From: Platerodrilus igneus
Taxonomy: Eukaryota; Arthropoda; Insecta; Coleoptera; Lycidae
Direction: 5' to 3'
Length of the DNA: 64,000 nt
Assembly (NCBI GenBank): GCA_036346225.1
Contig: JARFIW010001185.1
Location: forward strand, 434,001-498,000
Part shown: positions 46,213-56,497 of the stretch, in pieces
Layout of the letters: each line of letters opens with the position of its first letter
Position numbering within the stretch: the stretch's first letter is position 1
Notes under the pieces: generated by a model
What the model saw: the letters and a program-made list of their open reading frames with translations, nothing else
What the model was told of the DNA's origin: nothing
The model's database searches: none
Translations under genes and position numbers: made by a program

Positions 46213-46640
46213 AGTAGGGTATAATCAAGGATCCTGTGACCACATTTCCACCAGCATCCACATTTCCACACACATCTAGACCAAAAAGTTTTCTTCGACT
46301 AACCATTTTCATCTTTCGAGATAAACCTATCTTAAATTTTTTTTATGTTTCGAGATAAATGAGCATCCACATTTCCACACACGAGATAAACCTATTTTTA
46401 AGATTTTTTACCGCTAACATTCTGGACCAAATAGTTTTCTTCGACTAACCATTTTTTTTATCTTTCATCTGAACCAAATAGTTTTCTTCGTCTAGCCAAT
46501 GCATCTTTCGAGATAAACCTATCTTGTTTGGTATTAATTAAGATTAGATTTGTCTCAGCTACCCGAATTTCTAGGAATTTTTAGATTGCATCACCCCAAG
46601 GAGCTACCCCAATTTTAAGATTTTTACCAAGATCAATTTA
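46213..46640 (-). repeat. Tip module of the inner element, left
   Basis: Terminal module with short internal reiterations of CATTTCCACA-type and of ttttcttcgactaaccatttt and tttcgagataaacctatctt. Its mirror image is 56075-56497. The same module occurs at 51060-51530 and in the relics. Confidence 0.85.
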
Positions 46641-47023
46641 TAATCACCCCTCCTTTTTAATATCTACAGTCCTTTAACCAACAATAATAAGCATACAAAA
46701 GTTTAATATTTTATTTTTATCCGATTTACAGTTTAATAAACTAATTACAATTTTTACAAAGTATTTTGTTTGTGTAGCCGAATCCAAGCAGGTTAACCTG
46801 TAACAAAAAAGAGATTAATGGGTTGTTTAAAATAAATCTGTAATAAAAAGAGATTAAAGTAAAAGAGAGGAAACATGTTTTCAGTCAATAAGACATATTG
46901 TTGTTAATCCAACAATATGTTTTACCGTCCGGCGAGACCACGGGGAGGTAAACACATATCGCCGGGAACAAAGGAATTATTAAGGATGGGGGAGGGTAGA
47001 TATGCTTATAACTAACTTACATA

Positions 47024-50000
47024 CTATATATACACAATAAAATATAAACAACTATCTAATATCCTTATGCCCCATGCATATGTGGAAGTACTACCAGGGA
47101 TGACGTACCTTTTGTCATCTTCTGCCGATAAACTAATTTTATTAATTAATTGGGTGTACAAAACGTGTTTTTTACTCCGAATACATACCATGCTATGCAT
47201 AAGGGCACCAGAATTATTATACACAATGTCCTTAAAACTATCCACACTAATCCCCGCCACCACACTACGCGATACCCCCTTGATCTTTTTAATCGTGTCC
47301 TTCTCACTAAGAATGCAATACGACTTGGCCCTAGTTCCAACAAATTGTAACACCAAGTCGCCGTTGAACTCGTCTTTGAACTTGCCGGGGATCTTTTTGT
47401 TCACAAGAGGCATATTGTATTTGTTGTCTCGAGGGTAGTCACTAGTATCGAAATTGTTAATGTTTGCACTAATATCACTATACAAGTCTTTTGTTTCTAT
47501 ACTATACACTAAAGAGTCAGTGTCTGTGTAAAGTAGTGAGAGTTTGGTTCCATACAAATGTTTCATGGTGTTATAATGAAAATCATACATGAGGGTTTTG
47601 AAATATCTAAAACTGAAAAACCTGCATATATAGGCTTGTTGTACGTGACTTTTACCCTATCCATCTGTATAATAACCAAATCCTCTCCTAGCACTAAACT
47701 ACTGTTAAAGTTCGGGCGGGCGATAAGTCCACTCGCGCACAATTTTGTCCATCGTGTCTCCACCGGGTACGATCTTTACATCCACCCTCTTGTCGACATT
47801 CTCCATCGTTTTTCCAAAGACTGCGTTATTCATTAATTTGAAAAGTCTTTTCAAACGCATTTCTGGCAGATGTCCTAAGGGTGGTGTTCAAATCGATGTA
47901 GGGCTTTAACCATGGAGACTGGTCAAATTCCATGACCCGGTGGACTGCTGTGAGCCGGAGACCATTACGTAGCGCCTGCTGCAGGTTTCTGTAATGTATA
48001 ATGTAACGAATCTTGTTGAGCAACGTGGCGAGCAGCTTCGGAGTCTTGGAGGATGGTGTTGGGGTACCATGGTCTGCGGACAAAACGGTAAATCGTTGTG
48101 CTGTTCGTGTAGGTTTTCTGGATACTCCAGATCTACTTCCAGGATGTACCCCTTGTCCCCTGTTACAGATATGTCATCGATGTGGGCTTTCAGGAGGTTA
48201 AGCTCTTTCTCTTTCATCCACCGGAATCCGCTTATCGGTAACGGTTGTGACATGGCCCATCCATACAAATTATTGGCATCCAGATACGTCAAGTACCTTG
48301 AGGGCTCTTCAGAATTAAAATTGTGCATGTACTTATTGTTGGCGTGAGCGTATCGTTGACTGCACTGAGTTAGACCACCACGAATCCCTTTCTTTACAAA
48401 GTGATGCATTTCTACATCAGTGAATAGATCCAGTTTAACCCCAGTGTGTTTCAGCATGGCATCCCAGCTTAGACTAGGCGCTGTCATATATTGGCAGGGA
48501 TCCAAGTCGTAGGTTTTCAAGCACACACCCGGAAATTTTCGAACACGTCAGCTAATAATAAAACGTCTGTTTTCAAATAAAGATCGCTGTATTCGCCGAG
48601 TGTACATATGTTGAAAGCGTTCCATACATTCTGAGCGTGATCGTACTCAGACAACGAAATCACAGCATTCGTGAGATCATTATAGAAATCCTCTCGGGTG
48701 GTAGACTTGACCTATTTAACGCTGAAGCGTCTGTCACATACCTGTACGGGAACACACCCTTTCTGCGTAGAAATGAAAACTGTACGTCGTCGGAAACACT
48801 TCCTCATCTCAACAAACTGCTCGCATTCCAAATTTTTCACCAACTTATCCAGGGACGATGCCATGAAACGCAGCGAATCTATGAATCGCAGCTGTACTGT
48901 GCAATTATCGGTTTCATCATCATCTTCCTCTACGTCTGGTTCTTCACCATATAACCTCACATACTTTGTGAACGATACGAACCGCTCCTTATTATTTGGG
49001 ATCACTGTAACACGCTCCTTATCGCATCCCAATTCCTTCACAATAAAATGGGAATCATACCCACTTAAATTGTGGAATATGACCGGTATGAAATTTGGCA
49101 TCCGGTATTGGATGTTGCATTGGCGATGTGCTGCGAAGCGGAATTTCCTGTAAGATGACAGTGATCCCTCACTCGATCGTCTCCCAATGGTTTCCTGCAG
49201 ATGCCGCAATCGTCAACCATGTGGAATAACAATTCATCTAAAGGCTCCAACGCTGTCATCGGCACATTGTTTTTTAAGATAATCCCCAATCTGCGGGCTT
49301 CCTCCTTTAACTTCTCCATAAAACTTTAGCAGCTTCAGGCCCCCTGTACAATTCAAACTTATCCAGATTCTCATCGTAGGAGCATTTAATATAATATGCG
49401 AAGCTGTATGGTTCGTGTTGGTGGGTGCTGTTAGTAAAGGAGCCGGAAGGATCCTGTGCTGCCGAAGAAATAGGCTTCAACACGCTTTCAAAGTCCGCGT
49501 ATATAACAAACGGCACCCTCATTTGCTTGTGCACGCTCGTAAACTCGAGGATGTTGTTAAAGTGGTTGGGCATCTTTGTCGTAACGTGGTTGCAATCTTG
49601 TTCGGAGTGTTGTCGTAATTTATCTTCGGATGGGAAGAACACCAAGCATCCATCGCAAATCCATTTGCGGGTGCGCTCACGAGAGATCTGCTTACCCACT
49701 AGCTTCCCCAAATCTTTGATCAAACAGTAGTGTGTGTTATTCTCATTCTGGATGTAAAGGAGGTTGACGTGCTGATCCCTCTTTCTTTTGGTGAAGTGAA
49801 GCGGTCCCACAATCGACTTGCCCTCTACACCAAACACGTTGATGCTAATAGCATTTAATTCCTCGAACTTGGCTATGTCCTTTATGGGCATCGGGAACTG
49901 TAGTCCTGTCACGTCGAGTACAGTCGAGTAGTGCGGATATGATGAAGGTCGTAGGGGGTTTCCGTTTTCTGTGGGGTGTAGGGCTGCTACAACGCTCCAG

Positions 50001-54700: not shown

Positions 54701-55692
54701 ACAAGATTCGTTACATTATACATTACAGAAACCTGCAGCAGGCGCTACGTAATGGTCTCCGGCTCACAGCAGTCCACCGGGTCATGGAATTTGACCAGTC
54801 TCCATGGTTAAAGCCCTACATCGATTTGAACACCACCCTTAGGACATCTGCCAGAAATGCGTTTGAAAAGACTTTTCAAATTAATGAATAACGCAGTCTT
54901 TGGAAAAACGATGGAGAATGTCGACAAGAGGGTGGATGTAAAGATCGTACCCGGTGGAGACACGATGGACAAAATTGTGCGCGAGTGGACTTATCGCCCG
55001 CCCGAACTTTAACAGTAGTTTAGTGCTAGGAGAGGATTTGGTTATTATACAGATGGATAGGGTAAAAGTCACGTACAACAAGCCTATATATGCAGGTTTT
55101 CAGTTTTAGATATTTCAAAAACCCTCATGTATGATTTTCATTATAACACCATGAAACATTTGTATGGAACCAAACTCTCACTACTTTACACAGACACTGA
55201 CTCTTTAGTGTATAGTATAGAAACAAAAGACTTGTATAGTGATATTAGTGCAAACATTAACAATTTCGATACTAGTGACTACCCTCGAGACAACAAATAC
55301 AATATGCCTCTTGTGAACAAAAGATCCCCGGCAAGTTCAAAGACGAGTTCAACGGCGACTTGGTGTTACAATTTGTTGGAACTAGGGCCAAGTCGTATTG
55401 CATTCTTAGTGAGAAGGACACGATTAAAAAGATCAAGGGGGTATCGCGTAGTGTGGTGGCGGGGATTAGTGTGGATAGTTTTAAGGACATTGTGTATAAT
55501 AATTCTGGTGCCCTTATGCATAGCATGGTATGTATTCGGAGTAAAAAACACGTTTTGTACACCCAATTAATTAATAAAATTAGTTTATCGGCAGAAGATG
55601 ACAAAAGGTACGTCATCCCTGGTAGTACTTCCACATATGCATGGGGCATAAGGATATTAGATAGTTGTTTATATTTTATTGTGTATATATAG
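51785..55692 (+). pseudogene. Zinc-finger DNA polymerase B of the inner element (right arm, with promoter)
   Basis: The ATG at 51785 opens exon 1 (51785-52217) with two classical C2H2 fingers (FTCDVCGVVFSRSDSLKRH and FVCEVCPASFTRKDSLKRH) and a third C-x2-C...H-x5-H finger (RRCEECDVD...HQRSNEH). Introns are 52218-52266 and 52531-52575. Exon 3 carries SGWSLK, a C2H2-like CDGCLVFFPSEDKLRQH, exo I FVIYADFESVLKP (about 53207) and the VRDHCH zinc segment (about 53510-53600). Exo II NLSGYDSHFIV (about 53652), motif A LDANNLYGWAMS (about 54435), motif B AVFGKTMEN (about 54892) and motif C LYTDTDSLVYS (about 55170) follow, with the stop at 55690. This is the domain set of protein-primed polymerases of Polinton type. 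Single-base losses near 52590, 52640 and 52670 are unique to this arm; others are shared. It may be intact in the real genome if these are consensus errors. Confidence 0.88.
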
Positions 55693-56497
55693 TATGTAAG
55701 TTAGTTATAAGCATATCTACCTCCCCATCCTTAATAATTCCTTTGTTCCCGGCGATATGTGTTTACCTCCCCGTGGTCTCGCCGGACGGTAAAACATATT
55801 GTTGGATTAACAACAATATGTCTTATTGACTGAAAACATGTTTCCTCTCTTTACTTTAATCTCTTTTATTACAGATTTATTTTAAACAACCCATTAATCT
55901 CTTTTTGTTACAGGTTAACCTGCTTGGATTCGGCTACACAAACAAAATACTTTGTAAAATTGTAATTAGTTTATTAAACTGTAAATCGGATAAAATAAAA
56001 TATTAAACTTTTGTATGCTTATTATTGTTGGTTAAAGGACTGTAGATATTAAAAAGGAGGGTGATTATAAATTGATCTTGGTAAAAATCTTAAAATTGGG
56101 GTAGCTCCCTTGGGGTGATGCAATCTAAAAAATTCCTAGAAATTCGGGTAGCTGAGACAAATCTAATCTTAATTAATACCAAACAAGATAGGTTTATCTC
56201 GAAAGATGCATTGGCTAGACGAAGAAAACTATTTGGTTCAGATAAAAGATAAAAAAAATGGTTAGTCGAAGAAAACTATTTGGTCCAGAATGTTAGCGGT
56301 AAAAAATCTTAAAAATAGGTTTATCTCGTGTGTGGAAATGTGGATGCTCATTTATCTCGAAACATAAAAAAAATTTAAGATAGGTTTATCTCGAAAGATG
56401 AAAATGGTTAGTCGAAGAAAACTTTTTGGTCCAGATGTGTGTGGAAATGTGGATGCTGGTGGAAATGTGGTCACAGGATCCTTGATTATACCCTACT
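52045..56497 (+). repeat. Right inverted arm of the inner element
   Basis: Inverted copy of 46213-50682, starting at the ATTGCGGCGATGCG string shared with the left arm. It includes about 380 bp of non-coding DNA after the polB stop and then the terminal module. Confidence 0.92.
56075..56497 (+). repeat. Tip module of the inner element, right
   Basis: Mirror image of 46213-46640. Ends GTCACAGGATCCTTGATT then ATACCCTACT at the target duplication. The last bases equal the relic end at 3629 in most positions. Confidence 0.85.

What the first reader, a model, noticed from the sequence alone, without database searches (positions are those of the whole stretch)
46213..56497. Palindromic PolB-only element with 4.46-kb inverted arms and Polinton-type ends
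Seen directly: AGTAGGG...CCCTACT ends, a 6-bp CATATC duplication, and two nearly identical inverted arms that each hold most of a zinc-finger PolB gene around a 1.36-kb unique centre. Known: Polintons/Mavericks have 5'-AG ends and 6-bp duplications, but they also encode integrase, ATPase, protease and capsid proteins and usually have terminal repeats well under 2 kb. None of those genes is visible here. Inference: this is a separate class of mobile DNA built from a polymerase alone, with the gene inside the inverted repeat, replicated by its own PolB and integrated by an enzyme supplied in trans.
Basis: partly seen in the sequence, partly recalled or inferred. Interest (0 to 1): 0.92.

Follow-up and report, generated by a model that had tools for sequence, protein, structure and literature searches.

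The report
Mirror-image polymerase elements from split Polintons
This 10.3-kb stretch is a mirror-image mobile element that carries one viral-type DNA polymerase gene in both halves, and it is one of several kinds of mirror-image elements in this 2.7-billion-base genome that likely descend from an integrating Polinton-type virus and now hold its genes on separate pieces.

Summary
In detail: 46213-56497 is a 10,285-bp inverted duplication (arms ~4.47 kb, 99.3% alike, 1,362-bp centre) with AGTAGGG/CCCTACT ends and a perfect 6-bp duplication, CATATC. It interrupts the polymerase gene of a second polymerase-only palindrome (39540-59130, duplication GTTTTA; polymerases 39% identical), so the window nests two.

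The host genome was searchable. Nine further copies with both ends read have inverted arms of 1.2-7.1 kb, seven with perfect duplications. A is an internal deletion of a 13.9-14.7-kb palindrome. Nine of twelve A-family loci keep the start of an A32-type packaging ATPase, cut at the same residue (128-129 of 292), so one truncated founder appears to have spread as a palindrome. A second palindrome type (one locus read) has that ATPase intact and a short polymerase remnant; a third (two loci) has a SIAH-like ubiquitin-ligase gene.

So it is probably not a class built from a polymerase alone but an inverted-duplication derivative of an adintovirus-class Polinton, likely copied by its own protein-primed polymerase and integrated in trans. 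The bolder reading, a Polinton genome split over cooperating palindromic segments, is not excluded. Genome searches for capsid and protease did not complete; none was made for integrase.

The parts
46213..56497 (.). Element A: 10,285-bp palindromic PolB element
46207..46212 (+). Left copy of 6-bp target duplication CATATC
   Evidence: splits the PolB of element B
56498..56503 (+). Right copy of 6-bp target duplication CATATC
46213..50682 (+). Left arm (truncated: matches the first 4,468 positions of C12's left arm)
52045..56497 (-). Right arm (together with the centre it matches C12's left arm to arm position 5,885)
50683..52044 (.). Unique centre, 1,362 bp; holds the 5' end of the right PolB copy and an internal copy of the subterminal repeat
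51281..51445 (+). Internal copy of the subterminal repeat (outer copies 46465-46628 and 56080-56243)
   Evidence: 95.2% and 93.9%
51776..55700 (+). Right PolB copy with N-terminal C2H2 zinc fingers, in several frames; end approximate
47024..50735 (-). Left PolB copy without the zinc-finger start; DNA_pol_B_2 pieces at 48712-49212 and 47906-48547
39540..59130 (.). Element B: second palindromic PolB element (AGTAGGTAAGC ends) into which A inserted
39534..39539 (+). Left target duplication of B, GTTTTA (right copy 59131-59136)
44633..46212 (+). B PolB, N-terminal part, in B's unique centre; residues 92-227 of the model of 44807-46212 resemble OTU proteases
56498..58410 (+). B PolB, C-terminal part, mostly in B's right arm
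40256..43827 (-). Inverted partial copy of B PolB (from residue 611 of P0009 on) in B's left arm, interrupted by an insertion
35360..36060 (+). Small element: A-like tip and subterminal repeats, no gene seen; right end not found
1..3629 (-). Part of an element related to the third type (82-84% DNA identity to C347) with PolB remnants; runs off the window start

Best explanation
Element A is a mirror-image derivative, with its middle deleted, of a longer mirror-image element that likely arose from an adintovirus-class Polinton and is predicted to be copied by its own protein-primed PolB and inserted by a Polinton-type integrase supplied in trans. Steps: (1) shown: A, B and relatives sit between 6-bp duplications with AGT ends, arms included. 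(2) shown: the A-family copies that keep their centre share one ATPase truncation point; inferred from it: one founder, carrying ATPase sequence, that spread as a palindrome. (3) inferred: the palindrome forms during replication when a displaced single strand folds back, or a nascent strand switches template between inverted ends, so that one end is copied onto the other. (4) predicted from fold and family: initiation on a terminal-protein domain fused to PolB and released by the OTU-like domain. (5) inferred: integrase, and packaging if any, come from other elements. (6) shown: other palindromes in the same genome carry the intact ATPase or a SIAH-like gene on related ends; that they cooperate is untested.
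Against: Among PolB-type elements the arms are not generally closest to each other: over 2.4 kb the within-element distance is smaller than to any other element's arm in 2 of 7 (A, C1021), equal in 1 (C544) and larger in 4 (C731, C12, C1453, C1588); in the tree 3 of 7 pair as sisters. Distances are tiny (3-15 within), but this does not support re-making of the palindrome at each insertion in that type. C544 has no duplication, its 100-bp flanks being inverted copies of each other, and C791 matches 2 of 6. In the four one-ended loci the opposite half matches the arm at only 72-74% with 255-478 gap bases: decay or poor assembly. No integrase was seen in any ORF scanned and none was sought genome-wide; capsid and protease searches did not complete. 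Activity is inferred from youth and copy number only. Of 4,300 first-look tip candidates the call scored 40, of which 20 were unpaired within 17 kb.
Confidence: 0.63

Rival explanations
1. Ordinary decay: internally deleted Polintons whose terminal repeats grew in the chromosome by gene conversion or break repair (as proposed for Galileo in Drosophila). No special replication and no functional unit.
For: The Galileo paper describes inverted-repeat expansion and cites it for Polintons (PMC3573991, passages). A, C1588 and C791 are clearly further deletions. PolB frames are broken as assembled. In 4 of 7 PolB-type elements the arms are closer to other elements' arms than to each other, as exchange between copies would give.
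Against: The same truncated-ATPase junction recurs at 9 of 9 loci that keep the region, with separate duplications at C1021, C731, C12 and C1453, so the palindrome moved as a unit. In all 4 elements tested at least half of the arm indels are homopolymer events.
Confidence: 0.22
2. A segmented Polinton: PolB, ATPase and cargo segments with related ends that replicate, package and integrate together, each as a palindrome, comparable to the up-to-twelve-segment Vesanto virus.
For: PolB type keeps PolB and a cut ATPase; ATPase type (C2) keeps the ATPase whole and only a short PolB remnant; the third type shares a 736-bp tip (92-94%) with the PolB type and carries a SIAH-like gene. By my count 54 of 150 scored ATPase matches lie in an open frame of 297 aa or more. 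Segmented relatives with similar terminal repeats are reported (PMC8363768, passages).
Against: No capsid- or integrase-bearing segment was found; the capsid search did not complete and integrase was not sought genome-wide. The ATPase type was read at one locus only. Intact frames may reflect youth rather than selection. The tips of C2 and A differ.
Confidence: 0.22
3. The palindromes are assembly artefacts of long reads with fold-back templates.
For: C544 has 100 bp of inverted flank on each side, as such an artefact would give. Four one-ended loci have a gap-ridden second half. Several tips lie near contig ends (C229, C1628, C519).
Against: Nine of twelve palindromes have different flanks and a matching 6-bp duplication, and B's PolB is split by A exactly at the duplication. 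A fold-back artefact gives inverted flanks, not a direct duplication.
Confidence: 0.03
4. A truly separate class: polymerase-only palindromic transposons that never came from a capsid-bearing element; the A-family would then have gained its ATPase piece by joining the end of an ATPase element.
For: Element B shows only PolB in arms and centre and no ATPase match. In the A-family arm, the part inward of about 5.1 kb matches the left end of the ATPase element in direct orientation, lacking the first 40-odd bases of the tip, as a join would leave.
Against: ATPase fragment in 9 of 12 A-family loci; PolB remnants in the ATPase and third types; adintovirus-type PolB.
Confidence: 0.08

Closest known systems
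Polinton/Maverick (polintoviruses), adintovirus class of insects
   Same: AGT ends ((AGT)2 and (AG)3 motifs for vertebrate Mavericks in PMC8097293, passages), 6-bp duplications, PolB with an OTU-like domain, A32-type ATPase in the same genome
   Different: Arms of 4.5-7.1 kb in the better-preserved copies, including the gene; no complete ATPase, and no integrase, protease or capsid seen in the PolB palindromes read
Vesanto virus and other bidnaviruses (segmented linear PolB viruses)
   Same: Polinton-type PolB; genes spread over several linear pieces with similar inverted terminal repeats (PMC8363768, PMC4061559, passages)
   Different: Segments of 3.3-5.8 kb, reported from virus reads; here 7.5-16-kb palindromes integrated with duplications; parvovirus NS1/VP not sought
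Galileo (P superfamily) and other transposons with expanded terminal repeats
   Same: Inverted repeats that grow to take in internal sequence; copies with repeats only
   Different: Repeats to about 1.26 kb, 7-bp target sequences, P-type transposase; the longest-repeat copies lack the gene (PMC3573991, passages)
Teratorn
   Same: Long inverted repeats with terminal-type sequences also inside
   Different: 41-182-kb herpesvirus-piggyBac fusion (PMC6431247, passages)
Deletion derivative of the kalilo linear plasmid that forms hairpin and duplex DNA
   Same: By its title, a hairpin-forming derivative of a protein-primed PolB replicon
   Different: Mitochondrial plasmid; only the title was seen, in the reference list of PMC11071308

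Membership tests
Polinton/Maverick | Ends beginning 5'-AG(T), inverted | tested here: met
   A AGTAGGG, B AGTAGGTAAGC, C2 AGTAGTACATT
Polinton/Maverick | 6-bp target duplication | tested here: met
   Perfect in A and B; 9 of 12 palindromes overall, C2 5/6, C791 and C544 2/6
[quoted passage not shown]
   DNA_pol_B_2 pieces; fold match to adintovirus PolB and to OTU proteases. Priming itself not tested
Polinton/Maverick | Retrovirus-like integrase | tested here: inconclusive
   None among the element ORFs given to Pfam; no genome-wide search was made
Polinton/Maverick | Packaging ATPase | tested here: not met
   No match in A; truncated at residue 128-129 of 292 in 9 of 12 A-family loci; complete only in another element type, C2
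Polinton/Maverick | Capsid proteins and Ulp1-type protease | tested here: inconclusive
   No match among ORFs scanned; genome searches for PF21738 and PF00770 not answered (PF21738 again in 68, 70, 72, 77, 79, 115, 118, 120, 122, 126, 131, 134). PF21738 as the double jelly-roll accession is recalled
Bidnavirus/Vesanto-type segmented virus | Several segments sharing terminal repeats, genes split among them | tested here: inconclusive
   Three gene sets on related ends; co-replication or packaging not testable here
Bidnavirus/Vesanto-type segmented virus | Parvovirus-type NS1 helicase and capsid | not tested
   No targeted search
Foldback/Galileo-like DNA transposon | Cut-and-paste transposase of its own | tested here: not met
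   Only PolB pieces and zinc fingers among the A ORFs scanned

The most novel reading that the evidence does not exclude
This genome hosts a multipartite, genome-integrated Polinton: its polymerase, packaging ATPase and captured host genes live on separate palindromic segments with common ends, each segment re-made as a mirror image in replication, so the palindrome is the replicating form of the segment and not a scar.
Probability: 0.2. Interest if true: 0.88.

Novelty: new variant of a known kind. Interest (0 to 1): 0.68.

Why it matters
Polintons are described as single units, typically 15-20 kb long, with a full virus-like gene set (PMC4061559, passages). Here the polymerase and the packaging ATPase sit on different, recently multiplied mirror-image elements of one lineage, each lacking what the other has. 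That makes a question testable: how do protein-primed linear genomes break up into defective, satellite or segmented forms, as happened towards the bidnaviruses? It also offers natural integrated copies of what look like fold-back replication products.
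Full report
What is there. Positions 46213-56497 form a 10,285-bp inverted duplication. The arms align over 4,479 columns at 99.3% with 6 mismatches and 22 gap openings, around a 1,362-bp centre. The ends are AGTAGGG...CCCTACT with CATATC on both sides. The indels between the arms are mostly single-base, 17 of 22 in homopolymers (16 of 26, 20 of 27 and 22 of 43 in C731, C12 and C1021). I therefore do not read the broken PolB frames as decay.

Nesting. A sits inside element B, 39540-59130, which has AGTAGGTAAGC ends, a GTTTTA duplication and its own arms of about 2.5 kb, 92-94% alike. 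B's left arm also holds a 1,802-bp insertion. B carries one PolB whose 3' part is repeated, inverted, in the left arm. Protein P0009 matches B up to residue 541 left of A and from residue 541 right of A, so the insertion point and the 6-bp duplication are confirmed by an uninterrupted relative. The PolBs of A and B are 39% identical over 293 columns, and their palindromes begin at different places in the gene. Polymerase-only palindromes thus arose at least twice.

The genome. The window lies in a 2.71-Gb assembly of 1,723 contigs. A search with 488 bases of the left tip scored 40 of 4,300 candidates; all 40 listed matched at 97% or more. Besides A, nine pairs of inverted tips lay 8.3-16.4 kb apart; 20 of the 40 hits had no partner within 17 kb. 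All nine pairs have inverted arms beyond the tip: about 1.2 kb in C791, 2.5 in C544, 3.0 in C1453, 3.7 in C318, 4.6 in C1588, 5.0 plus 1.7 in C1021, 6.0 in C347, 6.3 in C12 and 7.1 in C731. Duplications are perfect in seven; C791 gives 2 of 6 and C544 2 of 6, the latter with 100-bp inverted flanks that I cannot explain. In the four one-ended loci (C1355, C883, C280, C1043) the other half matches the arm only at 72-74%, with 255-478 gap bases, which I take for decay or poor assembly. C731 is 14.7 kb and C12 13.9 kb long. A's right arm plus centre matches C12's arm to position 5,885, and its left arm stops at 4,468. A is therefore an internal deletion of that longer palindrome.

The ATPase. The centre of the long copies encodes a psq helix-turn-helix (Pfam 6.7e-07) followed by a P-loop. 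In the genome this sequence gave 150 scored matches out of 8,636 candidates; by my count 54 of the 150 lie in an open frame of 297 aa or more. One such place, C2, was read. It is a 10.86-kb palindrome with arms of about 3.2 kb (97-98%), an AGTAGTACATT tip and flanks ATTAGG/ATTAGA. It holds an intact 292-aa ATPase (Pox_A32, 7.5e-07) and a short PolB C-terminal remnant in the arms: 166 bp at 72% DNA identity, and 381 bp at 80% to the remnant at the window start; it was too weak for the protein search. Its subterminal repeats match those of the PolB palindromes at 83-90%. In the PolB palindromes the ATPase stops at residue 128-129 in all 9 of 12 A-family loci that have it; A, C1588 and C280 have none. 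One search lists six more places (C131, C1207, C998, C588, C1021 at 4.22 Mb, C1397) with the truncated version at 96-100%. One junction in so many loci, with separate target duplications where both ends were read intact, points to one founder that multiplied as a palindrome. In the A-family arm, the part inward of about 5.1 kb matches the left end of the ATPase element in direct orientation, without the first 40-odd bases of the tip. So the founder may have lost most of an ATPase element's middle, or gained the PolB cassette at such an element's ends; the data do not decide. Comparing the listings, the only ATPase matches within 20 kb of one of the 40 tips are of the truncated kind; both lists are partial.

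A third type. C318 and C347 share 736 bp of tip with the PolB type (92-94%). Their arms match the window's first 2.5 kb at 82-84% (C347 left arm), where pieces of PolB are found (25.6% and 75.8% identity at protein level), so they keep only PolB remnants. In the unique centre they carry a gene with SIAH-type RING and zinc-finger parts (Pfam 3.3e-10 and 2.7e-09; PDB SIAH1 2.7e-04), present in both. Substitutions between the arms of one element are 12 (3,762 columns) and 11 (5,992 columns), against 64 (3,764) and 72 (6,681) between the two elements. Here the arms of one element are kept alike or were made together. In the PolB type this holds clearly for C1021 only (11 against 30 or more) and barely for A (6 against 7). 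C544 ties, and in C731, C12, C1453 and C1588 an arm of another element is closer than the own second arm, at distances of 3-15 substitutions in 2.4 kb, where read errors and exchange between copies both matter.

How it likely works. Linear DNA is copied from its ends by PolB. A displaced strand that folds back, or a nascent strand that jumps to the opposite inverted end, copies one end over the other and yields a mirror-image molecule that still has two origins and a PolB gene in each half. Such molecules replicate and are inserted by an integrase from elsewhere. Insertion and the shared truncation are shown; the founder, the replication step and the integrase are inferred. A comparable derivative of the kalilo plasmid is known to me only as a title in the reference list of PMC11071308.

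Known or new. Ends, duplication, PolB and ATPase place the lineage with Polintons and adintoviruses. Long inverted repeats as such are known (Galileo, PMC3573991; Teratorn, PMC6431247; passages), and segmented PolB viruses are known (PMC8363768, passages). What I did not find in the listings is a Polinton lineage with PolB, ATPase and a SIAH-like gene on separate palindromic elements. I rate it a new variant of a known kind.

Noticed in passing
L043:6549-6815 to L044:560; L041:6064-6491: SIAH-like E3 ubiquitin-ligase gene (RING and zinc finger recognised; later parts similar to SIAH only by eye) as cargo in the centre of two palindromic elements, C318 and C347.
   Followed up: partly
window 44807-46212: PolB N-terminal region has an OTU-like fold with nearly invariant D107, C110 and H218 in a 48-sequence alignment, fitting the OTU domain described for Polinton polymerases.
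   Followed up: partly
L037/L038 (C544): About 100 bp of flank on each side of this palindrome are inverted copies of each other and there is no 6-bp duplication; later inversion-duplication or assembly fold-back.
   Followed up: no
L047:4340-5371, L048:8536-9998, L049:6579-8156, L050:108-2491: In four one-ended loci the second half resembles the arm at only 72-74% with very many gap bases, as if poorly assembled.
   Followed up: partly
window 41592-43393: 1,802-bp insertion in B's left arm with TGTTACA/TGTAACA ends and an apparent GTGG duplication.
   Followed up: partly
protein P0110 (Trachymyrmex septentrionalis): Predicted ant protein joining a PolB of this family to a phospholipase-A2-like domain (PF08398); that such domains are known from parvovirus capsids is recalled.
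   Followed up: no
left arm of C12 (L035), arm positions 41-414 and 5094-5280: Subterminal repeats recur in direct orientation on both sides of the PolB cassette, as if the cassette could be gained or lost by recombination between them.
   Followed up: partly
L055:3317-3889 (-) and 7293-7973 (-): Two ORFs (191 and 227 aa) of the ATPase-type element without any Pfam match.
   Followed up: no
C229, C1628, C519: Three tips lie within about 1-3.4 kb of a contig end, suggesting that the palindromes break the assembly.
   Followed up: no
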